Shown one piece after another: positions 1,684 to 15,231 of a stretch of DNA of 28,920 bases. The notes beneath the pieces were generated by a model that did not search any database, had not been told where the DNA came from, and saw nothing but the letters and a program-made list of their open reading frames with translations. The translations under genes and the position numbers were made by a program. Origin of the DNA: a virus. The stretch's first letter is position 1; every line of letters begins with the position of its first letter. Location: IMG/VR virus record IMGVR_UViG_3300046007_006334, positions 1 to 28,920 of that record; one strand, given 5' to 3'.

Positions 1684-4600
1684 ATGAGAAATAATGAAGA
1701 ACTGAAGCTCCTATTAGAATCTATTATTCCCGATAATATAAAGAGCAACCATGCTCTTTTTTATAAGATGTTCGAGATTTTCTTTGAGTACATTGCCGAT
1801 GCTTATATGTTAGGTGCTAACCCTAACCTATTGATAGAACCCAATGAAGATATGTGGGAATCTAAGTTTTCATCATTATATCATACCGACCTTAAAGAAA
1901 TCAAAAAAGAATTGATTAAAACATATCTTTATGATTACCATAAGTTTATCGAAGCTATGGAAAATGACCCGGAGATTTACGATTACTTCAAGGATGTTTA
2001 CAATAATACTGTAAATGAGCATCTTATTGATATCGATACGTTTGTAAGTAGAATAGATTCAGATGAGTTCTTGAGCCATAAAAAAGTGTCACAACAAAAA
2101 ACAATCCCTATTTTGTTCAATTACCTAATGGCTTTCTTTAAGAAGATGAATATACCCAACATTCATGGTGTCGACACATTTTTAGAGATGTATCAAGGTT
2201 CATCTATGAACCCTAAAAAGCCGTTCTCATACACTATCAATAGCTCGATCCCAAAACCAGTCTACGAGAAGGCTATACACAATAGAATACACCCGGTGGG
2301 GTTCAATAGTGAATTCAAATACGAATCAGCTTGGACTCTTCAAGACTTTGTTAACCTAAGAATATACAACGAAGACTGGAAAGTATATACTATTACAACT
2401 GAAAAGGAAAACGATTACTTTGATTATAAGATCAAAACTAAAAAGCTTCCTGAGTGTTCATTGACGTATAGAGGAGATGAGTTATTATCACAATTTGATG
2501 TTAACTATAAGAATACCTTAAGTTTATATGGTAAAAATATCACTGAAGCTACTGCTATAGGAGATGGGAAAAATCTTGTAAGAGTATCAGAGAACGAGTA
2601 CAAATTATTGATTGATACACCTACCATACACGATTCAGCATTCAATGGTGTCAAATTAGTTGAACCCGACATTAATGGGGGGTATAGTACATATGATGAA
2701 GAAGACTTCATTGAAGATAACAACCTATCTGCGCATGGAGGTATGATTGCCACTGACGGGTCTATCCTTATCGATGGACAAACCGTACCGGGTTACAAAG
2801 TTGTACAGAACGTCTTATTAGTAGAGAAGACAACCGATACAGGTACGTATTGGGAGGCGGATAATTCATTCGAAGTGGTAGATGGATTCGTATTTAAGAT
2901 ATCAGTAAAAGACCTGTACACTCAACAAGCTGCACGATTTGATGAAAGAAGTGACTTTATTAAAGTATACGATCACACTGAAGATGTAGAGATATTCAGC
3001 ACTGTAAACGCTCATTCATTTTTTATAACATTGTTAAACCTCACTGAACCTAACTATATTTTCTCAACAAATGACCGAGGTGGAGCTATTACTCACTCGT
3101 TGACAATATCTAAAGATAGATTGACAATTTACGAGAGAGGTGGTTATGTACTAGAAGCTTTCAAACAATTCACTACTAACCAACCTTACCACATAGTAGT
3201 ACAATGGGATTCCAATGGTAGAAGAATTTATGTGGATAATGAAGAACTATTCGTTACAAATAAAGCTAGATTTTATCCTGAAAAAATCTATTTTAAAACC
3301 ATTAAAAACGATTGGGATTTAGATTCAAGCTTAAATGTAACTTTCTCTTATAAAGAGTATTCTGTTACGTATAACAGAGCTTATGAGTACGATAAGAGTA
3401 TAACAGTCCCTTATAAAGTATCGTTCGTTAAATCGGGTAATATTCTAAACGGTACTACTCAGGTAAAAACGGATTACGTTTTATTGGAAAGCCTTTCAGA
3501 GTACAATGACATATATGACCTAAGAAAAAAATTAGCGGATAATAGAGACTTGATTACCCAGCAAAAAGCGGAGATACTAAGACAGTTTGCTATAAACGCT
3601 CAGTCAATGACAGCAGTTCAAAGTCAAATGGAACTCAACAGAATAAATGAAATGTTTAGCTCATTTGACGAACTATCGTCTAATAATGATAAGTTCAGTG
3701 TGACGTTTATAGACGAAGATGTGCTATTCTCAGATATAACAGTAGAGAAAGATGAATTTAAGATTAAGTCGTTTTTCGACAACATCCTGGATATCAATAA
3801 TGCTGTATTCAATGAGTACTCTATCACACCTGATGATAGCACATTCTTATACAGACCTGAAATAAACCAGATCATTATAGGTAATACATTGTTCCATTAC
3901 ACCCAAGGGCTTTGTAGAGTGAATTATATCATCGATAACTATGACATTTATTCACGTCCATTAACAGTCAATGAGATTGATAAACTTTATACAAACCATG
4001 ACCTTTACCTTTCATCGGGGGATCTACCTGACGATATAGAACTTAGATGGAACTTAGATAATGCTATTTGGGATAGTTATCACTCAGAAATGGACTTCCA
4101 CAAACCTAAACTATGGGATATAAGTAACACCTATAGTATAGGGATGGAGAACTTGTTAATCAAGTGGTATATCGCCAGTAACTATAAAGGAGCTACATTC
4201 GATTGTTCTATAGATAAGTATATAGATCATCCTAAAGCACTTATAGACTGGACTATCATGTACAATCCTGAGACGGTTGAATGGACCAATGTAGAGAATG
4301 TTACAGAGACAATAGATGCTGATAACAATCTATTCATCGTAGCCGAACTTAAAGACGGTACACGTCTTGAATACGTTAAGAACAAGTACCTTAAACATGT
4401 TAAACGATACATAAGTGATAGAGACGGGAATGTTTACGATTTAGACATACCTTTAACTAGAAAAGCTATTTTAGAGACTGAATCTGATTACAGAGCTTAT
4501 GGTTTAAAAGAAGTCAAGTACATTCCTATTACAGATTTTAACACATTCGCAGTTAAAACAATAGTAAGGATGCCCGAATTTGAAGGTGTTACCGATTATA

Positions 4601-7485
4601 ATAATAAGTTAAATGCTGTTAAAATAGATGTGGCAAGACCTCTAGTACAAATGAAAGGTGTTTATATAATGCAGGATCCCGCATTAGTGTCTAATCCAGA
4701 GACATTAGAGATCGTTGTAAAAGGTATAAGCTCATATGAGTATCAAAAGAATCAATTAGAGGATTTTGAAGGTAGAACTGTTTATGACAGTTACATAAGC
4801 CTAGAATTCTTAAGCAATTATGATGATCCTTATATCAAGACATTTAGATGGGACGAGAGTGAGAGTTCTTTAACATTCGAAGAAGCATTGGCTACAATCG
4901 ATACAGAGGATAACTACATAATATTGACTAATGAATATGTGTTCATAATATTAGATGACGGATTTAAACAAATTCTAACAGATGTAGAAATTCAAGACCT
5001 TAGAAGTGATACTATATTATTGAACGAGAATGGTGTAGAAGTGTTCTATGATGAAGACATCATTAAGCAGTATCCTTCAACGTCATTTATGGACTACTCT
5101 TACAAGATCAGAATTGAGGCTTTAGGTTCCGACGATTCTGAATATGTAGTTGAAATTGAGCTAGGTGACGAATATATGCCAGATGCCAAGTATCAGGAAG
5201 AGATCGTACCTAAATTATGTACAAGAGTTACAGACGGTAAAATCTACTTAAACATGGATACAAGAGCTACAATAGCAAATTGGCCGCTTGTTCGACATTA
5301 CGACTATGTATACACTATGGATGAAGAGTACGAAATGTTGCTCGAAGGTAATGGTATCGGTGGTGTGTTAGAGAGCCTAGTTAAATTAGGATTCTTGATA
5401 TCAGATATCAGTAAGACGGTTGACCTTACTATGTGGAAAATAACAACATCTGATAATAGCAGAAAAATTGATGTAATAAACAACAAGTTTACAGACTTTG
5501 ACGGTGCTTTCATCGCAATGGACGCATCGAAAATGTATGTAGGTATACCCGATGATCCTCAAAATGAAGCTATACTTAACAGATACCCGGTAAGTGTAAA
5601 AGATCAACTTAATTACTATTATATGAGTCCTATCAATGAGAGAATTTATATTGATGAAGATGAGTTCCCTGAAATTAAGACATTATGGCAACTGGATTCA
5701 TCGGGTAACATTCTCAAAGACTCAAACGGTAAGCCTATTCCAGTACTAACAAGTGCAGGTCAGATCAAACGTTTTTATGACGTTCCGAAGTACACACGAC
5801 ATGAAGTACTAATACAAGAAATTACCGTACCGACTGCACCTACGTTTGTTGGATACGTTAATAATATGTCGGTATCTCAGTTACAGCATGAAATGAGTGT
5901 AGAGAACAATTACATATTAGATGAGCCGGTATTTGAAGTAGAGATCACCGATTTTGTATCTGTTATCGAACCTGGATACTGGATTAATTCAGATGGGTTT
6001 AAGGTAGATGTTGTACCATCTAAAGAGTTTGTGTATTACTATGACGGCATTTACAAAGTACCAGCTAACTTGGATATGTCATTGAGAGATAGTAACACAT
6101 TGTATATTTGGGTAGGTGGTTATAGAGAGACTATCACAAAGGCTACAAACGGGGATATGTACTACATCTCAACAGGTAGCGGGGCAACTGTTTATGTGAC
6201 AGCTGTTGATCTAGTTGATATATTCTATTACGTGCCTAAAGTATCAGGTGGTTCAATACCTGTACCTTATAACCCGGCACAAGTTACAAGTAGCACAGTA
6301 TGGTACTTAGAAGCTGGAGGTAACAGAATATGGAGAGAGAACGCTATATTAGAAGATAGAATGTTCTATTATGATAACGGCACTGAAACTCCTTTAAGTG
6401 ATATTCAATTACCACAGGTATATACTATGGGTGGTATAGGTATAAAAGATATGCAAACTCGTTATTTGGTGAACACTCCATCGAAGGACAATTGGTTCTA
6501 TTTCAGTAGTAATCTATGGAATCATGTTACGGGTGAACATTATAGAATATATCTTACACCTTATGAAGTAAACTTAGTTCAACCTGACGGTAAAGCGACA
6601 TTGAGTATCAGCGACGAAGCTGGGAATATAACAGAAAGAGTGGTTCAATGTTATGTTCCCAAAAATTACGTAGACTCATACAACTCTATAGTAACAATCA
6701 AGGAAACTGAATATAAACTTATAGAGAAGCAGTATGATGGACAAGAGTTTATCACAATCACTACTCAGGTGTCGGTTGCTCAAGAAGAGTACATCAAAGT
6801 ACCTGAAACTATAAAATATGAGGTATTATCACGTACTACTAATGCTCATTTCATAGATGAAAATGGTATAGCTGTATCACTTATCAATAGATTAGATGAA
6901 ACATATTTCGATCCTACATCGAATAAGTACTATGTCAATATACCTTATATTCGACACAAAAGAATATATGCCGATGAAAATAATCAGTGGGTATATTATT
7001 ACTTTGAAGGTACAGATAAAAGATATATTGATAAATGGAACTTTGAATGGTACTCTAAGAGTTTCTTAAGTAATGCTACTAAGTTCATTGATATTCCTTA
7101 TAAAGAAGAAAAACAAACGTTCGAAGAAGTTAGACAATTAAGATTCTTTGTTAACTCATTAGGTACCACTAAATGGTTGGACAAATCGGGTTATGAGTTC
7201 TTATCTGCTAAAGAAGGTAGATATATGTATATGACAGGAGATGGTAGACTATATCCTACATCATATGACAACTTGGGTAGATATTATAGAGACGAAGGTG
7301 ACAATACAATATATATTGAGAAATTCAACGAGTACATGCTCAATAATAATGTATGGTGGCATATTGAGTACGAAGGTGATAATACGTATGTTTCAAGAGA
7401 AGGTATGTTCAATTATAGACAGAATGAAATTGCGGCACTAGATTGTACTAGAACGTCAAATACGTTGTTCCATTCTGCTTTATGA
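1684..7485 (+). CDS. 7: Giant baseplate wedge protein gp7
   Basis: A 1933-aa protein directly after gp6, started by ATG behind AAAGG at a spacing of 6. Position and the N-terminal helical region (IPILFNYLMAFFKKMNIPNI, about 140-160; HPVGFNSEFKYESAWTL, about 200-216) fit T4 gp7, which links the baseplate centre to its periphery. T4 gp7 is about 1030 aa, so this one is nearly twice as long. The extra length includes a LamG/concanavalin-like beta region (about 390-520; YHIVVQWDSNGRRIYVDNEE) and a predicted coiled coil (about 609-666). A typical LamG closing motif (YSRPLTVNEIDKLY, about 753-766) follows, so the lectin-like fold seems interrupted by the coiled coil. The C-terminal third is tyrosine- and tryptophan-rich beta sequence. 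A single open frame without frameshift. Family call is firm from context, moderate from sequence. Confidence 0.78.
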   Translation: MRNNEELKLLLESIIPDNIKSNHALFYKMFEIFFEYIADAYMLGANPNLLIEPNEDMWESKFSSLYHTDLKEIKKELIKTYLYDYHKFIEAMENDPEIYDYFKDVYNNTVNEHLIDIDTFVSRIDSDEFLSHKKVSQQKTIPILFNYLMAFFKKMNIPNIHGVDTFLEMYQGSSMNPKKPFSYTINSSIPKPVYEKAIHNRIHPVGFNSEFKYESAWTLQDFVNLRIYNEDWKVYTITTEKENDYFDYKIKTKKLPECSLTYRGDELLSQFDVNYKNTLSLYGKNITEATAIGDGKNLVRVSENEYKLLIDTPTIHDSAFNGVKLVEPDINGGYSTYDEEDFIEDNNLSAHGGMIATDGSILIDGQTVPGYKVVQNVLLVEKTTDTGTYWEADNSFEVVDGFVFKISVKDLYTQQAARFDERSDFIKVYDHTEDVEIFSTVNAHSFFITLLNLTEPNYIFSTNDRGGAITHSLTISKDRLTIYERGGYVLEAFKQFTTNQPYHIVVQWDSNGRRIYVDNEELFVTNKARFYPEKIYFKTIKNDWDLDSSLNVTFSYKEYSVTYNRAYEYDKSITVPYKVSFVKSGNILNGTTQVKTDYVLLESLSEYNDIYDLRKKLADNRDLITQQKAEILRQFAINAQSMTAVQSQMELNRINEMFSSFDELSSNNDKFSVTFIDEDVLFSDITVEKDEFKIKSFFDNILDINNAVFNEYSITPDDSTFLYRPEINQIIIGNTLFHYTQGLCRVNYIIDNYDIYSRPLTVNEIDKLYTNHDLYLSSGDLPDDIELRWNLDNAIWDSYHSEMDFHKPKLWDISNTYSIGMENLLIKWYIASNYKGATFDCSIDKYIDHPKALIDWTIMYNPETVEWTNVENVTETIDADNNLFIVAELKDGTRLEYVKNKYLKHVKRYISDRDGNVYDLDIPLTRKAILETESDYRAYGLKEVKYIPITDFNTFAVKTIVRMPEFEGVTDYNNKLNAVKIDVARPLVQMKGVYIMQDPALVSNPETLEIVVKGISSYEYQKNQLEDFEGRTVYDSYISLEFLSNYDDPYIKTFRWDESESSLTFEEALATIDTEDNYIILTNEYVFIILDDGFKQILTDVEIQDLRSDTILLNENGVEVFYDEDIIKQYPSTSFMDYSYKIRIEALGSDDSEYVVEIELGDEYMPDAKYQEEIVPKLCTRVTDGKIYLNMDTRATIANWPLVRHYDYVYTMDEEYEMLLEGNGIGGVLESLVKLGFLISDISKTVDLTMWKITTSDNSRKIDVINNKFTDFDGAFIAMDASKMYVGIPDDPQNEAILNRYPVSVKDQLNYYYMSPINERIYIDEDEFPEIKTLWQLDSSGNILKDSNGKPIPVLTSAGQIKRFYDVPKYTRHEVLIQEITVPTAPTFVGYVNNMSVSQLQHEMSVENNYILDEPVFEVEITDFVSVIEPGYWINSDGFKVDVVPSKEFVYYYDGIYKVPANLDMSLRDSNTLYIWVGGYRETITKATNGDMYYISTGSGATVYVTAVDLVDIFYYVPKVSGGSIPVPYNPAQVTSSTVWYLEAGGNRIWRENAILEDRMFYYDNGTETPLSDIQLPQVYTMGGIGIKDMQTRYLVNTPSKDNWFYFSSNLWNHVTGEHYRIYLTPYEVNLVQPDGKATLSISDEAGNITERVVQCYVPKNYVDSYNSIVTIKETEYKLIEKQYDGQEFITITTQVSVAQEEYIKVPETIKYEVLSRTTNAHFIDENGIAVSLINRLDETYFDPTSNKYYVNIPYIRHKRIYADENNQWVYYYFEGTDKRYIDKWNFEWYSKSFLSNATKFIDIPYKEEKQTFEEVRQLRFFVNSLGTTKWLDKSGYEFLSAKEGRYMYMTGDGRLYPTSYDNLGRYYRDEGDNTIYIEKFNEYMLNNNVWWHIEYEGDNTYVSREGMFNYRQNEIAALDCTRTSNTLFHSAL

Positions 7486-10238: not shown

Positions 10239-10486
10239 CTAAGAGGGAAGCAAATTCCCTCTCCTTCTACAAAAAAATTCAAATCATTCAATTGATCTTC
10301 TACTTTTCTAAGCAGATAAGTATTTCTCTCAACATCAAACAATAAAAAATCATTAATAACAGTAACGTTAGTCACTTTAAAACCGAATTCGGATAATTCT
10401 TTCATCAATTTACTTATTCTCTCACCCGAAGGTGAGACTTCAAATGACAACTCTTCCTCTATCGGTATAAGCGAATCTTCTATCAT
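10235..10486 (-). CDS. Hypothetical acidic 83-aa protein
   Basis: A small acidic protein without a recognised domain. It starts in an ATGA overlap with the stop of the downstream uvsX half, so it is probably translationally coupled to it. Its own stop shares the palindrome TTAA with the tail-fibre stop on the other strand. Predicted pattern is helix (SGERISKLMKELSEFG, about 19-34) followed by beta strands (KVTNVTVINDFLLFDV). No membrane segment or signal peptide. Coupling to uvsX hints at a role in recombination, but that is only context. Confidence 0.6.
   Translation of the reverse strand: MIEDSLIPIEEELSFEVSPSGERISKLMKELSEFGFKVTNVTVINDFLLFDVERNTYLLRKVEDQLNDLNFFVEGEGICFPLS
10242..10262. terminator. 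Bidirectional hairpin between convergent genes
   Basis: A perfect 8-bp stem (AGAGGGAA, loop GCAAA, TTCCCTCT) just after the tail-fibre stop and inside the last codons of the convergent 83-aa gene. It is the natural place for transcription to end on both strands. There is no strong U-tract on the + side, so the terminator call is tentative. Confidence 0.45.
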
Positions 10487-11040
10487 TCAGTATCGTCCCA
10501 GTCGAAATCTTCATCATTAATCTCAGCATGCTCGAATGTGTACTTTTTCTCAATGTACTGCTTGAAATCAGTGTTAGCAATGATAGGTGCCCAAAACTCT
10601 TTTGAATACAAGTCACGCTCACGCCATTTCTTATCATTTTCTACACAAGGACGTGTATACCAACCTACGTTAGGTTTATCGACATATCCACCCTCAAGAG
10701 CATCTTCAAGAATACCATAAAATGGAGAAATACCACCGTCATAGTTAATCAAGTACTTAAGTTTAGAGTTTTCTTTAGCGAAACGTGACTTCTTAGTACT
10801 TGCTGTTACGATAGCACCTGTAACTTCATCACCCGTTTTGTCTTTAGCTTTACTTGAACCCAATACAATAGATGAAGAGGCAAAGTAGATACCACGACCA
10901 CCACCGATTGCCAACGGGTCGTACTGATTCATTGAGTTGTGACTAATCAAACCATTAGATAAGATGTAGTTATGACAAGGAGTTTCAATATCATATACCG
11001 TTGTTTTTTGTTCACTTAATTTAACTGATTTAACCTTCAT
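10483..11040 (-). CDS. uvsX: UvsX C-terminal half with split-intein C part
   Basis: A 185-aa protein. Residues 1-35 are a C-intein: it has the block F pattern TTVYDIETPCHNYIL and ends in the block G LISHN, with penultimate His and terminal Asn. The next residue is Ser (+1 nucleophile) followed by MNQYDPLAIGGGRG. From there 150 aa match the C-terminal part of T4-type UvsX/RecA (GGG-G after the L2 loop, LINYDGGISPFYGILEDALE, VGWYTRP, acidic tail ending in DFDWDDTE). The ATG at 11040 is chosen because AAAGGA sits 5 bases upstream and the product then begins like other C-inteins; an ATG 11 codons earlier has no such site and lies at the predicted transcription start. After trans-splicing with the other half the protein would be 341 aa (T4 UvsX is about 390), the strand-exchange recombinase for phage DNA. 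Confidence 0.92.
   Translation of the reverse strand: MKVKSVKLSEQKTTVYDIETPCHNYILSNGLISHNSMNQYDPLAIGGGRGIYFASSSIVLGSSKAKDKTGDEVTGAIVTASTKKSRFAKENSKLKYLINYDGGISPFYGILEDALEGGYVDKPNVGWYTRPCVENDKKWRERDLYSKEFWAPIIANTDFKQYIEKKYTFEHAEINDEDFDWDDTE
10936..11040 (-). other. Split-intein C fragment (IntC, 35 aa)
   Basis: Codes for MKVKSVKLSE through LISHN. Splice junction is N35 | S (codons GTT-complement AAC at 10936-10938, then TCA at 10933-10935). Length and block F/G motifs are those of known split-intein C parts such as gp41-1 and NrdJ-1. Confidence 0.9.
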
Positions 11041-11064
11041 ATTATTCCTTTGTTTGTGTATGTT

Positions 11065-11084
11065 ATTATACACTGTTTTAACTT
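11065..11084 (-). promoter_or_regulatory. AAGT-N10-TATAAT promoter of uvsX C half
   Basis: TATAAT (11065-11070 on the minus strand) with AAGTTAAA placed so that exactly 10 bases separate AAGT from TATAAT. Predicted start near 11058 gives an 18-base leader with AAAGGA. A 6-bp inverted repeat (GTGTAT/ATACAC, 11056-11073) spans the -10 box. The same architecture occurs at four other genes in the window. Confidence 0.7.
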
Positions 11085-11980
11085 TATTTTATACCTTTCT
11101 CTATAGTATAACCATATAGAGAACTATTGGGACCTATTTTATCTGTTTTACCGGCTCTCAAATTACAAAAACGATCATAACTATGTCCAAATGTCTTACA
11201 CCATTTTATGATATCTTCTTTTGTATATAGATGAGTCTTATTTCCTCCGTTATCAATTACAGTCACTTCGGATATGTAATGATTGTATCGATACATAGGA
11301 CTCACCCTGTCATACCACATAGAGTACTGAATAGTTTTTAGTTCATGTAATACATCGTCATCGTCGTTATCAAATGAGGTGTACTCTTTATAAGACCAAC
11401 CCTCATTATTAGACTTGTTTTTGAACTTTTTTGAACTTAAAATATCAGTTAAACCATTCGACCTAATAAATTCTGTAACACCCATATCAGCTTTAAATAA
11501 TTCACCTAACGGACTTAAAAAGTAGAAGTACTTAAACTTAGGATTTTTAGACCCGGATACATCAGCATGGTTCTCTTTCAGTTTGTCTTTGTGAGAGTCA
11601 GTAAAGACTCTACCTTTTTGTTTCGCTGACATTTTTTCTCTTTGTAATATTGATCGTTCCTGACCATATATTTCTTCATACGTCTTGCCTTTAGTAGTAA
11701 CATATAATGAGTCACCACCTAAGGTCAAATTATAACCATTGTTATATGTATCATACAAAGATATATAGTACTGTTCTCTTTCATTTAGATAATAAATGTC
11801 ATCTATACCCTCTTCAAGAACTGTAGTGACTATAGATTCGACACCATATTTCTTAATAGCCTTATGAAAAAGGTGACCTGATCTAATATGTTGTTTAAGA
11901 CGATCTTGCACTTCTTTTGTTGTTATGCCTATGTATCCCTTTCCATTGGGAAACTTATGATAATATACCTTTCCGTTCAT
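11084..11980 (-). CDS. GIY-YIG homing endonuclease
   Basis: A 298-aa free-standing homing endonuclease lying between the two halves of uvsX. The GIY-YIG nuclease domain occupies about 1-90: KVYY (4-7) and GYIG (15-18) replace the name-giving motifs. R27 and H31 fall at the same positions as the catalytic residues of I-TevI. E69 in EREQYY matches the metal-binding Glu and N84 in GYNLTLGG the conserved Asn. Residues about 115-150 (GRVFTDSHKDKLKENH, SGSKNPKF) are NUMOD3-like DNA-binding motifs, followed by a NUMOD1/helix-turn-helix-like region (LFKADMGVTEFIRSNGL). Start is set by AAGGAG 6 bases upstream. A late promoter octamer lies just before it. By analogy with T4 I-TevI and Seg enzymes it would cut an unbroken uvsX and spread this arrangement by repair. 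Confidence 0.88.
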   Translation of the reverse strand: MNGKVYYHKFPNGKGYIGITTKEVQDRLKQHIRSGHLFHKAIKKYGVESIVTTVLEEGIDDIYYLNEREQYYISLYDTYNNGYNLTLGGDSLYVTTKGKTYEEIYGQERSILQREKMSAKQKGRVFTDSHKDKLKENHADVSGSKNPKFKYFYFLSPLGELFKADMGVTEFIRSNGLTDILSSKKFKNKSNNEGWSYKEYTSFDNDDDDVLHELKTIQYSMWYDRVSPMYRYNHYISEVTVIDNGGNKTHLYTKEDIIKWCKTFGHSYDRFCNLRAGKTDKIGPNSSLYGYTIEKGIK

Positions 11981-11997
11981 AAATAACTCCTTCGAGA

Positions 11998-12005
11998 TAT
12001 TTATA
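11998..12005 (-). promoter_or_regulatory. Late promoter TATAAATA for the homing endonuclease
   Basis: A perfect T4-type late octamer on the minus strand in the gap between the uvsX N half and the endonuclease. The expected start (near 11992) falls at the edge of the AAGGAG ribosome site, so the transcript would have almost no leader. The T4 td intron endonuclease I-TevI is also expressed from an internal late promoter. Confidence 0.65.
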
Positions 12006-12010
12006 TGAAC

Positions 12011-12034
12011 TCATAAACTCATACGAGTTTATGA
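12011..12034 (-). other. Hairpin over the uvsX N-half stop codon
   Basis: A perfect 10-bp stem (TCATAAACTC / GAGTTTATGA) with a 4-base loop that contains the stop codon of the uvsX N half. No U-tract follows on the minus strand, so it is not a classical terminator. On a read-through transcript AUAAACUC could instead pair, with one bulge, with GAGUUAU next to the endonuclease ribosome site. Confidence 0.5.
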
Positions 12035-12901
12035 TAACGTATATAACTTTGTGTCGTCATAAAGTAAAATATCATCGTCAGGTACTAAATCACCCACAGG
12101 TACCCAAATATCTTTACCTTCTCTACTTACTAAGAATTTATGACCTTCAGTGAATGACATTATTGAACCGTCTTCCATTTCAATATCATATGTTATAGCA
12201 TCTGTATATTCAAACTTGTTTTGCACAGTCTGCCATCCTTCAGTAGTCATAACGCTATCACCAACTAATATGTCTTTGAGTGATACACTTCCATTAGAAG
12301 TCATAACAGTAACATTTTCTGTACCACAATCATAGACCTGATTTATCACAAACACGGTGAAACCAAGTCCAGTTAATAGACGAGCAAACGAGTTCTTTTT
12401 CTTAGATACTGTCATATCCGAAACGTCTTTACCTATTGTAGCATCTTCAACTGTCTTAGATGTAACAAGTCCACCCCAAGAGTCGATAACAAGAAGGATT
12501 TTAGCCCTCTCTTCTTTTTCAAGATCATTAGCAATCTGCATTACTGTTTGTAACAATGATTCAATCTGATTGTCCTGGATAACAAGGATTTTATCAGTAT
12601 TGATACCTACGTTCTCAGCGAAGACGGGATCGTATGCGAACTCGCTGTCAAGATATACAACTTCCATACCTTTCTTTTGAGCGTTCTTTGCTACTTTCAT
12701 ACCGATAAAAGACTTACCGAGTGAAGAAGGTGCTGCAATCTGATTGACTTTACCTACTGGAATTCCCCCGTCGAGTTTTCCACTAAAGAGAATGTTCAAC
12801 GAAAGACAACCTGTGTTAATGAAGTCTTTAGGTGTTTGTTCATCTTTATAGATGAACTCCTGGATTTTCTTGTTCTTAGAGAGTTTACCGATTAAGCTCA
12901 T
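12029..12901 (-). CDS. uvsX: UvsX N-terminal half with split-intein N part
   Basis: A 290-aa protein. Residues 1-191 are the N-terminal part of a T4-type UvsX/RecA recombinase: Walker A APSSLGKS (57-64), the conserved VVYLDSEFAYDP (81-92), Walker B ILLVIDSWGG (135-144) and a strand ending in VFVINQVYD (183-191), which leads into DNA-binding loop L2. Residues 192-290 are an N-intein: Cys1 (C192), block A-like VTVMTSNGSVSLKDILVGD, and block B SFTEGHKFLV with the T-x-x-H catalytic pair (T251, H254). The frame then stops. The other half is encoded 1 kb downstream beyond an endonuclease gene. Start ATG follows AAAGGA at a spacing of 5-6. Trans-splicing joins D191 to the Ser of the C half. Not a frameshift or decay: all splicing residues are intact and each half has its own promoter and ribosome site. 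Confidence 0.93.
   Translation of the reverse strand: MSLIGKLSKNKKIQEFIYKDEQTPKDFINTGCLSLNILFSGKLDGGIPVGKVNQIAAPSSLGKSFIGMKVAKNAQKKGMEVVYLDSEFAYDPVFAENVGINTDKILVIQDNQIESLLQTVMQIANDLEKEERAKILLVIDSWGGLVTSKTVEDATIGKDVSDMTVSKKKNSFARLLTGLGFTVFVINQVYDCGTENVTVMTSNGSVSLKDILVGDSVMTTEGWQTVQNKFEYTDAITYDIEMEDGSIMSFTEGHKFLVSREGKDIWVPVGDLVPDDDILLYDDTKLYTLS
12032..12328 (-). other. Split-intein N fragment (IntN, 99 aa)
   Basis: Starts at the Cys codon 12326-12328 directly after extein INQVYD and runs to the stop. The length is in the range of natural split-intein N parts. Contains GDSVMTTEGW and the T-x-x-H motif TEGH. No endonuclease domain is embedded. Confidence 0.9.
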
Positions 12902-12930
12902 ACGTTTCCTTTAATCATTATATAAGTTGT

Positions 12931-12950
12931 ATTATAGTACAATTGTACTT
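12931..12950 (-). promoter_or_regulatory. AAGT-N10-TATAAT promoter of uvsX N half, with palindrome
   Basis: TATAAT (12931-12936) and AAGTACAA with exactly 10 bases between AAGT and the -10 box. The spacer and AAGT box are covered by a perfect 14-bp palindrome AGTACAATTGTACT (12936-12949), a possible operator. Predicted start near 12924 gives a leader of about 23 bases. Confidence 0.7.
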
Positions 12951-12952
12951 AA

Positions 12953-13246
12953 TTATTCAGGTTGAGGTAGGTTCTCGTTAAACGTGGACACACCATTGTA
13001 TAATAGGTTGTATTCACTCTTAACATGTTTGTATTCCTGTACAAAGGCATTAAAATCTTCTGCGGGTAAAATCACATATGTAACGTTGTTTTCTGTACGA
13101 GTACCAACATTCTTGATGTCGTACTTTCCCATAGGAGAAAACTTTTCTATGGGGAATACTGCAGGTTTAGAGCTAACATTTTGATATGCGATAGGTGCAC
13201 AACCAGTTATAAAAAGAACACTACACGCTAATAGTAATTGTCTCAT
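12953..13246 (-). CDS. Outer-membrane spanin lipoprotein (Rz1-like)
   Basis: A 97-aa lipoprotein: signal peptide MRQLLLACSVLF and lipobox I-T-G-C with the lipidated Cys at position 16. The start overlaps the end of the preceding coiled-coil membrane protein by 26 bases in another frame, the classic arrangement of two-component spanins, which fuse inner and outer membrane at lysis in Gram-negative hosts. The mature part is about 82 aa, longer than lambda Rz1, and not Pro-rich. ATG follows AAAGG at a spacing of 9. The role is inferred from topology and pairing, not from sequence similarity. Confidence 0.72.
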   Translation of the reverse strand: MRQLLLACSVLFITGCAPIAYQNVSSKPAVFPIEKFSPMGKYDIKNVGTRTENNVTYVILPAEDFNAFVQEYKHVKSEYNLLYNGVSTFNENLPQPE

Positions 13247-13559
13247 TTGGTTTTACCTTTTCTAATTGAGATTTAATATCATTTACTTGAGCATCAATTT
13301 CGAGAACCGCTTCAGTTCTTTTCTCTAGGACCTCAACTGTAGATTTATGAGCCAACTCTTGAGCCTCTTGTTCAGCTTCTTTAATCTGAACTTCAGCTTT
13401 AGCAGACTCGTTCGCTACCTGATCCTTTATGTCTTCTAATTCATTCTCAGCATCTCTTCTATCATCATAATTTTTCCATAGAAGAAAGCCTAAAGCCAAT
13501 GTCACACCTGTTATAACCATATTCTTTATGTTACTAAAGAACGCTATAATAGTATTCAT
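13221..13559 (-). CDS. Inner-membrane spanin (Rz-like)
   Basis: A 112-aa protein with one N-terminal membrane segment (about 13-28, MVITGVTLALGFLLW) and a long charged coiled coil (about 33-100, rich in E, A, K, Q) expected in the periplasm. Such N-in topology plus coiled coil, next to an overlapping lipoprotein gene, defines i-spanins. ATG follows AAAGGA at a spacing of 6. It is the fourth gene of the dnaJ operon; no holin or endolysin is visible nearby, so the lysis genes are dispersed. Confidence 0.72.
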   Translation of the reverse strand: MNTIIAFFSNIKNMVITGVTLALGFLLWKNYDDRRDAENELEDIKDQVANESAKAEVQIKEAEQEAQELAHKSTVEVLEKRTEAVLEIDAQVNDIKSQLEKVKPNETITISV

Positions 13560-13561
13560 AA

Positions 13562-13819
13562 TTATCCTTTCTGATTAGGTATATACCTTTGAAACCCGTT
13601 AAGTTTATCATTATCACTCACATAAATCTCTCTAACGTCGGAAAACGCCACTAGCTTATATGTTACGTCTTTACGGGATTTTGATTCCATGAATACTTGA
13701 TTGTCTTTAATAACGTATCTTTTATCCATGTCCCTAACTGTCTTTACGAGGGACCCATCCCTCGGATCGACTTTGAATCCTTTTCGCAATAAAAAAGAGT
13801 TTAAATCGCTCAATGTCAT
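13562..13819 (-). CDS. Hypothetical 85-aa basic protein
   Basis: No recognised family. Starts within an ATGA overlap with the nuclease stop, behind AAGGAG at a spacing of 5, so it is well translated and coupled. The sequence suggests a short helix (LSDLNSFLLRKG) followed by beta strands (KRYVIKDNQVFMES, VTYKLVAFSDVREIYV). No signal or membrane segment. Tight coupling to the Cas4-like nuclease makes a nucleic-acid role possible, unproven. Confidence 0.6.
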   Translation of the reverse strand: MTLSDLNSFLLRKGFKVDPRDGSLVKTVRDMDKRYVIKDNQVFMESKSRKDVTYKLVAFSDVREIYVSDNDKLNGFQRYIPNQKG

Positions 13820-14538
13820 ACGGTCTCCTTAGCATCACAAATGCCTTGTTTTTTATAATCACACCAGTCACAAAGTCTACCTACTGATTTAGGGAATACA
13901 GTTTCAGTCTCGATTGCTTTAATGTGGTTAGCGTATGAACGTGTGTAATTTTTGTAGTACTGACGTTCAAATCTGAATGTATTTATTTCATTGTGCTCGA
14001 CGTACACATAATCGGCAATAACAGTGTCTATGTCGGAGAACATGTTAAATGCCCAAATAGAATAAAGCATTACCTGATCGTTTGTTTGGTATTCCTGGGA
14101 CTTCACTTTACCAGTCTTCCAATCGACGACAATAAGAGTTCTACCATCTTTAATTAAGAAGTCAATCTTACCCCGAAGCATAGTGTTAGGATTGTGATAG
14201 TTAGAGGGTGACAACTTAGTGTCCAGTCCCATATGTATCTCATGTCCTATAGCACCGGGATGAAGTAAGTAAGATTGACCCATCTCAGACTGAATGAATT
14301 TTAAGGCTATATTTTCAGCCTCTTGCTGTTTCTCTTCAGATAGTAAAACGTAATTAAACGCGGGTAGTTCTTTTTGGTTAGGTACCCAAAGTTCAATGAT
14401 CTGATGTACACGTGAGCCTTTTTCAAGGGCTTCATTTGTAGTGAATACCTTTATCTTATCTATGTATGATAATTTAAACTTATGAGGGCAATGTTTAAAC
14501 GAATCGATCTTGCTATATGAATAAGGACTAAACTTCAT
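13816..14538 (-). CDS. PD-(D/E)XK exonuclease with Cas4/AddB-type Fe-S cysteines
   Basis: A 240-aa nuclease of the RecB/Cas4-like PD-(D/E)XK family. Visible elements: N-terminal [14 protein letters not shown] (C17), GSRVHQIIE (H45), motif II GKIDFLI (D126), motif [11 protein letters not shown] (D139, K141) and the Q-x-x-x-Y helix (Q155, Y159). Three more Cys are at C223, C226 and C234 in [14 protein letters not shown]17 with this C-terminal cluster is the 4Fe-4S layout of Cas4 and AddB nucleases. ATG at 14538 is chosen over a GTG two codons earlier because AGAGG lies 5 bases before the ATG but touches the GTG. It overlaps the end of dnaJ by 11 bases. Probably 5'-3' or end-processing exonuclease for recombination or host DNA degradation. 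Confidence 0.82.
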
Positions 14539-15205
14539 TTTCACCTCTCTTAGGAAACTCTACATTAAATCTAACATATAGATCACCTACAGCGTTAAAC
14601 AGTCCATGTCTCATTCCGTGTCCTTTTACTCTAAGAACATTAGTCGATGAAAATTTATCAGGTATCATTACTGTACACACGTCTCTACCCCAAAGCTTTA
14701 AATGATGTGGTTTACGATCTAACATATCGTCAAGAGATACATTAGCAAGTACCTCTAAATCTAACGGACCCACCTGTTTCACTTGATCGTCCATTTGGAT
14801 ATAGACTTTTATTATCATATCACCCACACGTTTACCGTCGGTGTCACCTTTACCGGGAATAACGAGTGTACTTCCGTTTGTCATACCTCTAGGTACGTCT
14901 AACTCGACAATCTTTCCGCCTTTGTTTATCTTTACCTTCCCACCGAAGTAAACGTGTTCAATTGGAACATTGTACATCTGATAAATGTTAAGGTCGCGAA
15001 TTGTATATGACGAACTAAACTGTAGATCATATCCAGCTTTTTTGTTTGGGTCGGATAAGATAGAATAAGCCTCATTGACTTCTTTGAAGATGTTTTCATC
15101 ACCACCTTTGTCGGGATGATGAAGTTTAGCTTTAGCTCTATATGCTGATTTTATTTCGTCGGGTGTACTGTCAGGTGACACCCCTAAGGTTCTGTAGTAT
15201 TTCAT
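14528..15205 (-). CDS. DnaJ/CbpA-like J-domain co-chaperone
   Basis: A 225-aa J-protein. The J domain is at 1-65 with the HPD tripeptide at 30-32 ([10 protein letters not shown]) and [14 protein letters not shown]. After a short linker two beta-rich C-terminal substrate-binding domains follow ([29 protein letters not shown]), so it resembles the CbpA/type II class; the zinc-finger CxxCxGxG repeats of DnaJ are absent. It would stimulate the ATPase of host DnaK. The ATG at 15205 (MKYYRTLGV, the usual J-protein start) is chosen; an ATG six codons upstream is possible. No clear ribosome site precedes either. First gene of an operon with the Cas4-like nuclease and spanins. Confidence 0.85.
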
Positions 15206-15231
15206 GTTGTTATTATACAACATGTTTACTT
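15203..15231 (-). promoter_or_regulatory. AAGT-N10-TATAAT promoter of dnaJ, with inverted repeat
   Basis: TATAAT at 15212-15217 and AAGT at 15228-15231 with exactly 10 bases between. The -10 box lies in the centre of a perfect 8-bp inverted repeat (CATGTTGT/ACAACATG, 15203-15224). The predicted start falls at or next to the A of the dnaJ ATG, so the message may be leaderless. Confidence 0.6.

What the first reader, a model, noticed from the sequence alone, without database searches (positions are those of the whole stretch)
10483..12901. Fractured uvsX: split intein with a GIY-YIG homing endonuclease between the halves
Seen: a UvsX frame ends in a 99-aa N-intein (Cys1, T-x-x-H), a separate gene begins with a 35-aa C-intein (LISHN | Ser), and a 298-aa GIY-YIG gene lies between. 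Known: 'fractured genes' with split inteins and a free endonuclease have been found mainly in metagenomic phage sequences, often with VSR-like (EDxHD) endonucleases. Inference: this is a working trans-splicing system in a recombinase, split in the L2 DNA-binding loop (D191 | S), with a GIY-YIG partner, a combination that may not be described. The active recombinase then depends on splicing, and a homing event rides in the very gene that drives homing repair.
Basis: partly seen in the sequence, partly recalled or inferred. Interest (0 to 1): 0.92.

Follow-up and report, generated by a model that had tools for sequence, protein, structure and literature searches.

The report
Phage recombinase gene split by intein
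A phage's DNA-repair gene (uvsX) has been cut in two by a mobile element, so its two half-proteins are predicted to be stitched together by a split intein; the same kind of break recurs in many phages, including laboratory-grown T4-like ones, so it is real and interesting but not unique.

Summary
On the minus strand, uvsX is in two genes: UvsX-N::IntN (12029-12901) and IntC::UvsX-C (10483-11040). A 298-aa GIY-YIG homing-endonuclease gene (11084-11980) lies between. All splicing residues are present, both exteins are under purifying selection, and an 84-85% identical, syntenic 111-kb relative has the intact, empty-site uvsX. A contiguous mini-intein at the same site folds as an intein (AlphaFold and Foldseek; gp41-1, NpuDnaE and NrdJ-1 among the matches). 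The best reading is a 'fractured gene' that makes UvsX by protein trans-splicing, with the endonuclease as the past or present homing driver.

It is not unique. I found at least 11 other distinct fractured uvsX genes at this exact L2-loop site in IMG/VR. They carry GIY-YIG, HNH, unclassified or decayed endonucleases, or none. Ten cultured T4-like phages have uvsX fractured 13 residues further on, with GIY-YIG-family genes between; Yersinia phages TG1 and fHe-Yen9-01 form a 93%-identical filled/empty pair. No held paper names uvsX split inteins, but the key paper (Dassa 2009) could not be read.

New here are the distinct insertion site, endonuclease turnover on a retained split intein, and a relative whose uvsX is probably in three pieces. 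Splicing and cutting are inferred, not shown.

The parts
12329..12901 (-). UvsX N-extein, residues 1-191 (Walker A APSSLGKS; ends VINQVYD at the start of loop L2)
   Evidence: RecA/UvsX profiles; 85% aa identity to intact uvsX of L019
12029..12328 (-). IntN, 99 aa + stop: Cys1, block-B T60-x-x-H63
   Evidence: aligned with 11 same-site IntN; gp41-1 split intein hit 5e-4 alone, 4e-10 with profile
11084..11980 (-). GIY-YIG homing endonuclease gene, 298 aa; Y6, Y16-I-G, R27, H31, E69, N84 conserved
   Evidence: phrog_314 1.4e-31; profile vs I-TevI 3e-7; full-length relatives L022 and L174 lie in the same split intein
10936..11040 (-). IntC, 35 aa (VYDIETPCHNYIL...LISHN): block F, penultimate His34 and Asn35
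   Evidence: TIGR01443 above cut-off; invariant across same-site relatives
10483..10935 (-). UvsX C-extein, 150 aa + stop, +1 residue Ser
   Evidence: T4_UVSX_C 1e-10; T4 UvsX 3IO5 hit 3.5e-20; 85% aa identity to L019
11041..11052 (-). Shine-Dalgarno region of IntC::UvsX-C (AAAGGAATAAT before ATG); analogous SDs precede ATG 11980 (GAAGGAG) and ATG 12901 (AAAGGA)

Best explanation
This is a fractured uvsX. Two genes encode UvsX residues 1-191 fused to an N-intein, and a C-intein fused to UvsX residues 192-341. The two intein halves associate and splice in trans: Cys1 attacks, the chain transfers to the +1 Ser, Asn35 cyclises. This restores one continuous loop L2 and an active recombinase (inferred). 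The GIY-YIG gene between the halves is a homing endonuclease that would cut intein-free uvsX at or near the L2 codon junction; recombination repair, itself UvsX-dependent, then copies in IntN, the endonuclease gene and IntC together (inferred). Relatives show the cycle: empty site, endonuclease present, endonuclease replaced by HNH, endonuclease decayed to a relic, endonuclease gone with the split intein retained. Shown: anatomy, motif and residue conservation, the same-site family, the empty site, endonuclease relics, selection on both exteins. Inferred: splicing, cutting, homing.
For: Splicing residues: Cys1, block-B His63 and SHN|[ST] are invariant in the aligned same-site copies, and the block-F HNYIL-type motif is strongly conserved. 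They also stand in copies whose endonuclease is gone (L165, L021, L169). A contiguous 141-aa intein at the same site (L175) models at pLDDT about 70-94 per block and matches Mtu RecA, gp41-1, NpuDnaE and NrdJ-1 inteins (TM-target about 0.7-0.8). Purifying selection on both exteins against intact L019: dN 0.12/0.14, with dS saturated for the N half and about 3.8 for the C half. IntN and IntC against L165: dN/dS about 0.18 and 0.08. Only one UvsX locus in the 155-kb and 110-kb fractured relatives, and it is the fractured one. Intact, syntenic relative L019/G003. I-TevI catalytic residues are all present. The only relatives that match far beyond the nuclease domain of this GIY-YIG protein, L022 and L174, sit in the same intein, which suggests a shared target. 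Intein and extein histories differ: window vs L166 extein 31%, intein 55%; window vs L173 extein 63%, intein 42%; intein data reject the extein clade, p-AU 0.024.
Against: No splicing or cutting data. The record is a 28.9-kb fragment, so a second uvsX in this very genome cannot be excluded. Pfam intein scores for the window halves are below Pfam's own cut-off. The AU test of incongruence is moderate and its clade was chosen after seeing the trees. The AlphaFold model of the endonuclease was too poor to use (pLDDT 47).
Confidence: 0.9

Rival explanations
1. Genes-in-pieces without splicing: the two UvsX halves simply assemble non-covalently, as reported for the endonuclease-split NrdA of phage Aeh1, and the intein motifs are vestigial.
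For: A precedent exists (Friedrich 2007, cited in PMC10448857).
Against: Splicing residues and both intein halves are conserved in widely diverged copies and show low dN/dS, also where the endonuclease is gone. The break is in the DNA-binding loop L2.
Confidence: 0.04
2. The split intein splices, but the GIY-YIG gene is a bystander that does not cut uvsX; it merely landed in a safe gap.
For: Endonuclease genes at this site are swapped (HNH in L166-L168) or lost, so the association is loose. Free-standing phage endonucleases often cut far from their own gene (PMC2988022).
Against: Similarity beyond the nuclease domain to the window protein was found only in the two other uvsX-intein copies. GIY-YIG genes recur inside uvsX at two different codons. 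T4 SegA, a GIY-YIG enzyme next to uvsX, is reported to cut uvsX (PMC2988022).
Confidence: 0.2
3. Decayed or non-functional uvsX, with an intact recombinase elsewhere in the same phage.
For: The window is a fragment.
Against: Purifying selection on both halves; single fractured uvsX in two relatives of more than 100 kb.
Confidence: 0.04
4. Assembly chimera or sequencing artefact.
For: None found.
Against: Same arrangement at the same codon in at least a dozen contigs from different samples, and in ten separately isolated, sequenced phages at a neighbouring codon.
Confidence: 0.005

Closest known systems
Fractured uvsX of cultured T4-like phages (Yersinia TG1, Shewanella Thanatos-1, Enterobacter EnC07, Shigella SP21535, Escherichia ELT1, Pseudomonas PspYZU05, Vibrio vB_VmeM-32 and EniLVp02, Salmonella SEA1, Proteus Pm5461)
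   Same: Same gene, same order UvsX-N::IntN / endonuclease / IntC::UvsX-C; GIY-YIG-family genes (phrog_314/7504) between in those tested; class-1 residues Cys1 and HN|T.
   Different: Insertion codon is ...GG|TG, 13 residues further into L2; intein sequence clearly different. Window site is NQVYD|S.
'Fractured genes' with new split inteins (Dassa et al. 2009, NAR, cited in PMC6892783 and PMC10448857; not readable here)
   Same: Host gene broken within a conserved motif, split-intein halves on the two ORFs, free endonuclease ORF between; phage-borne (general knowledge).
   Different: Host gene uvsX. I could not check that paper's gene list.
Pseudomonas phage MIJ3 split DNA polymerase B intein (PMC6892783)
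   Same: Phage gene split by a putative split intein with a free endonuclease between.
   Different: PolB and an HNH endonuclease.
gp41-1, NrdJ-1, NpuDnaE and Mtu RecA inteins
   Same: Same Hint fold; gp41-1 is the closest solved split intein by sequence.
   Different: Other host genes; the other RecA-family inteins found here in phages sit at GG|(T/S)G or in Walker A, not at this codon.
T4 SegA
   Same: GIY-YIG homing endonuclease linked to uvsX and reported to cut it (PMC2988022).
   Different: Free-standing next to an intact uvsX. The near relative G003 shows a SegA-like layout, with a free GIY-YIG gene close to intact uvsX.
Aeh1 NrdA genes-in-pieces
   Same: Endonuclease gene splits a phage enzyme gene.
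   Different: As reported, the two peptides function as separate chains; here both intein halves are present.

Membership tests
Split intein (class 1, trans-splicing) | Nucleophile Cys/Ser at position 1 and block-B TxxH in IntN | tested here: met
   C1, T60-x-x-H63; C1 and H63 invariant in aligned same-site copies
Split intein (class 1, trans-splicing) | Block F/G, penultimate His and terminal Asn, +1 Ser/Thr/Cys | tested here: met
   LISHN|S; TIGR01443 above cut-off
Split intein (class 1, trans-splicing) | Hint fold formed by the two halves together | tested here: inconclusive
   Shown for the contiguous same-site intein L175 with the split halves as alignment rows; the window's own two-chain complex was not folded
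Split intein (class 1, trans-splicing) | Ligation of two polypeptides shown | not testable with these tools
   Needs expression
Fractured gene | One conserved host gene in two ORFs, each ending or starting in an intein half | tested here: met
Fractured gene | Free-standing endonuclease ORF between the halves | tested here: met
   11084-11980
Fractured gene | Uninterrupted homologue exists (empty site) | tested here: met
   L019/L020, L028, L078
EDxHD / VSR-like homing endonucleases | VSR-like nuclease domain | tested here: not met
   The window endonuclease is GIY-YIG; not filed there
GIY-YIG homing endonuclease | GIY...YIG core with catalytic Y, R, H, E, N | tested here: met
   Y6, Y16-I-G, R27, H31, E69, N84 match I-TevI; phrog_314 1.4e-31. 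Pfam GIY-YIG itself scores only in relatives L022, L019 and L174
GIY-YIG homing endonuclease | Cuts the intein-free allele and drives its own copying | not testable with these tools
   Needs a cutting assay and mixed infections
UvsX/RecA recombinase | RecA core plus T4-type C-terminal domain reconstituted by the two exteins | tested here: met
T4-like GG|TG uvsX intein allele | Same insertion codon | tested here: not met
   Window site is 13 residues upstream
Genes-in-pieces without splicing (Aeh1 NrdA type) | No intein at the break | tested here: not met
   Both intein halves present

The most novel reading that the evidence does not exclude
The fractured state of uvsX is not just debris of homing but has become a stable control point: recombinase, and hence homing repair and recombination-dependent replication, appears only after the two halves meet and splice. 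This would explain why the split intein persists with conserved residues after the endonuclease is lost or swapped, and why one relative (L021) seems to carry two split inteins and make UvsX from three chains. The evidence does not exclude this; simple irreversibility (only an exact deletion restores the gene) explains it as well.
Probability: 0.12. Interest if true: 0.8.

Novelty: new variant of a known kind. Interest (0 to 1): 0.5.

Why it matters
UvsX is the recombinase that phage homing is reported to rely on, so an element that breaks uvsX and survives by protein splicing is a neat test of how far selfish genes can load an essential function. The family found here lines up, at one codon, the empty site, a cis mini-intein, split inteins with GIY-YIG or HNH endonucleases, decayed relics, and split inteins with no endonuclease. 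That makes the gain, swap and loss cycle directly testable, and it adds natural split inteins and a testable near-isogenic pair (TG1 and fHe-Yen9-01).

Tried and rejected
AlphaFold of the endonuclease with three sequences: pLDDT 47, not used. First intein alignment misplaced the short IntC rows; replaced by one that also carries the C-extein, in which IntC rows are still partly misplaced, so the L175 model rests mainly on the IntN rows. Genome-contig scan: no relative. Megablast of the window against phages: no match. Literature searches for uvsX with split inteins: none held; Dassa 2009 not held. Looked for other genes fractured with close relatives of this GIY-YIG enzyme among the ~100 loci fetched with it: only uvsX in L174/L208. 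A co-conversion gradient around the site was not visible against L019. The count of 37 phage records covering >=80% of the N query was not used as a census, because some (e.g. pEJ01) are intact.
Full report
WHAT IS THERE. All three genes are on the minus strand. UvsX-N::IntN is 12029-12901 (290 aa), the GIY-YIG gene 11084-11980 (298 aa), IntC::UvsX-C 10483-11040 (185 aa from the ATG with a good Shine-Dalgarno; the listed GTG start at 11073 has none). The N gene carries a RecA/UvsX core (Pfam RecA 7e-17; phrog_97 7.5e-44), the C gene the T4 UvsX C-terminal domain (1e-10). The break is VINQVYD191|Cys1 ... His34-Asn35|Ser. IntN has T60-x-x-H63. IntC matches the curated intein C-terminal model above its cut-off. 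IntN alone finds the gp41-1 split intein among solved structures (5e-4); a family profile does so at 4e-10.

EMPTY SITE. The nearest relative (L019/L020; contig G003, 111 kb) has one intact uvsX, 84-85% identical to the two window exteins, reading straight through ...NQVYDSMNQYD.... Most genes of the window, from uvsX to the portal gene, have counterparts in the same order in G003, with local differences. So the window carries an insertion in a conserved locus. Substitutions between window and L019 exteins are mostly at third positions (99 of 143 and 75 of 112); dN is 0.12 and 0.14, with dS saturated or about 3.8. Both halves are therefore under purifying selection. G003 also has a free-standing GIY-YIG gene (12850-13644, 41% over 123 aa of the window enzyme) about 600 bp upstream of its intact uvsX, separated from it by two small genes. 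That layout recalls T4 SegA, which lies next to uvsX and is reported to cut it (PMC2988022).

SAME-SITE FAMILY. Profile searches of IMG/VR and a UvsX HMM found the same break, at the codon after N[QH]xYx or its equivalent (C...HN|[ST]), in contigs L021, L022, L165 (=L067/L073), L173 (=L066/L076), L171 (=L071), L166, L167, L168, L169/L170, L172 and L174, plus an N half in L176. What lies between differs. A full GIY-YIG gene stands in the window, L022 and L174. L171 has a 268-aa gene with an I-TevI-type DNA-binding domain. L166-L168 have an HNH gene. L172 has a 241-aa protein without a Pfam hit. L173 has only a truncated NUMOD3 piece, L170 a 119-aa remnant. L165 has a 91-bp gap that still encodes the last ~20 residues of the L022 endonuclease (0 of 2000 shuffles as good). 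L021 has a ~130-bp gap with a weaker relic (30 of 2000). L169 has almost nothing. L175 has an uninterrupted 141-aa intein at the same codon. Its model is confident over the intein part and matches solved inteins, including Mtu RecA, gp41-1, NpuDnaE and NrdJ-1. Endonucleases are thus swapped and lost while the split intein stays and keeps its splicing residues.

MOBILITY. Intein and extein similarities disagree. Window against L166 (a distant UvsX lineage): extein 31%, intein 55%. Window against L173 (a close UvsX lineage): extein 63%, intein 42%. Extein data unite window, L021, L022, L165 and L173 (support 100/98). Intein data reject that clade (p-AU 0.024), a moderate result for a clade chosen after the fact. 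Among all hits to the window endonuclease, only L022 (residues 12-295) and L174/L208 (residues 14-232) match far beyond the nuclease domain, and both sit in this same intein; this suggests a shared target. All I-TevI catalytic residues are present.

CULTURED PHAGES. Ten T4-like phages opened here have uvsX fractured in the same way, with GIY-YIG-family genes between (phrog_314/phrog_7504 in the five tested, alignment for the rest), several annotated as homing endonucleases. Some are decayed: TG1 lacks the GIY-YIG half, vB_VmeM-32 the other half. Their codon is GG|TG, 13 residues downstream of the window's, and the intein is a different allele. TG1 and fHe-Yen9-01 are about 93% identical in DNA around the locus except for an exact ~1.4-kb insertion at that codon. 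The vB_VmeM-32 annotators had already written 'conserved domain HintC' on the C half. No held paper joins uvsX and split inteins.

ONE UVSX. In the 155-kb and 110-kb fractured relatives the only UvsX match is the fractured one. The window itself is a fragment.

CONCLUSION. A real fractured uvsX whose product almost certainly depends on protein trans-splicing (inferred from anatomy, conservation and selection), with a probably active GIY-YIG homing endonuclease (inferred). It is a new variant of a known kind: a new insertion codon in a known type of arrangement, in a gene where the arrangement turns out to be common.

Noticed in passing
L021 1-2020 (IMGVR 3300026521_000082): uvsX appears to be in three pieces: an atypical split intein in Walker A (SSLGK|C, 28-aa IntN then stop; ~143-aa IntC ending GIIHHN|SFIG) plus the L2 split intein. 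The first piece is cut by the contig end.
   Followed up: partly
L083 5302-7131 and L084 2872-4701: RecA-like gene split in Walker A by what looks like an atypical split intein (ESG|CLHPTQ..., short IntN; long IntC ending SNHN|TGKT).
   Followed up: no
L039 5001-6560: Contiguous intein in Walker A of a UvsX whose L2 site is empty; related to the split Walker-A intein of L021 (31% over 148 aa).
   Followed up: partly
L175 1600-3318: Contiguous 141-aa mini-intein without endonuclease at the window's exact L2 codon, a possible relative of the pre-split state.
   Followed up: yes
L009 2881-6015 (Prevotella phage Lak-B2, TAG read as Gln): RecA-like gene fractured at AMG|C...HN|SG with two ORFs between; one looks VSR-like by eye (FEYDGGQGVFHQ), but no Pfam or PHROG family supports it.
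   Followed up: partly
L016 2380-4350 (Salicola phage SCTP-2): One RecA-like protein with two contiguous inteins, in Walker A and at GG|SG in L2.
   Followed up: no
L202 12850-13644 (G003): Free-standing GIY-YIG gene related to the window enzyme, close to an intact uvsX; SegA-like layout.
   Followed up: partly
L169 and L170: Identical UvsX halves but different endonuclease remnants between them (almost none versus a 119-aa ORF), i.e. endonuclease loss caught within one phage type.
   Followed up: partly
L007 1-3839 (Vibrio phage vB_VmeM-32): DNA polymerase gene annotated in at least four pieces, with an I-LimII-like ORF between two of them, just upstream of the fractured uvsX.
   Followed up: no
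L017 5241-6620 (Proteus phage Pm5461): A second, Hef-like homing endonuclease directly downstream of the C half of the fractured uvsX.
   Followed up: no
window 14528-15223: Phage gene with DnaJ J-domain and DnaJ C-terminal domain.
   Followed up: no
window 1684-7485: 1,933-aa protein with no PHROG match, between baseplate-wedge-like and tail-fibre-like genes.
   Followed up: no
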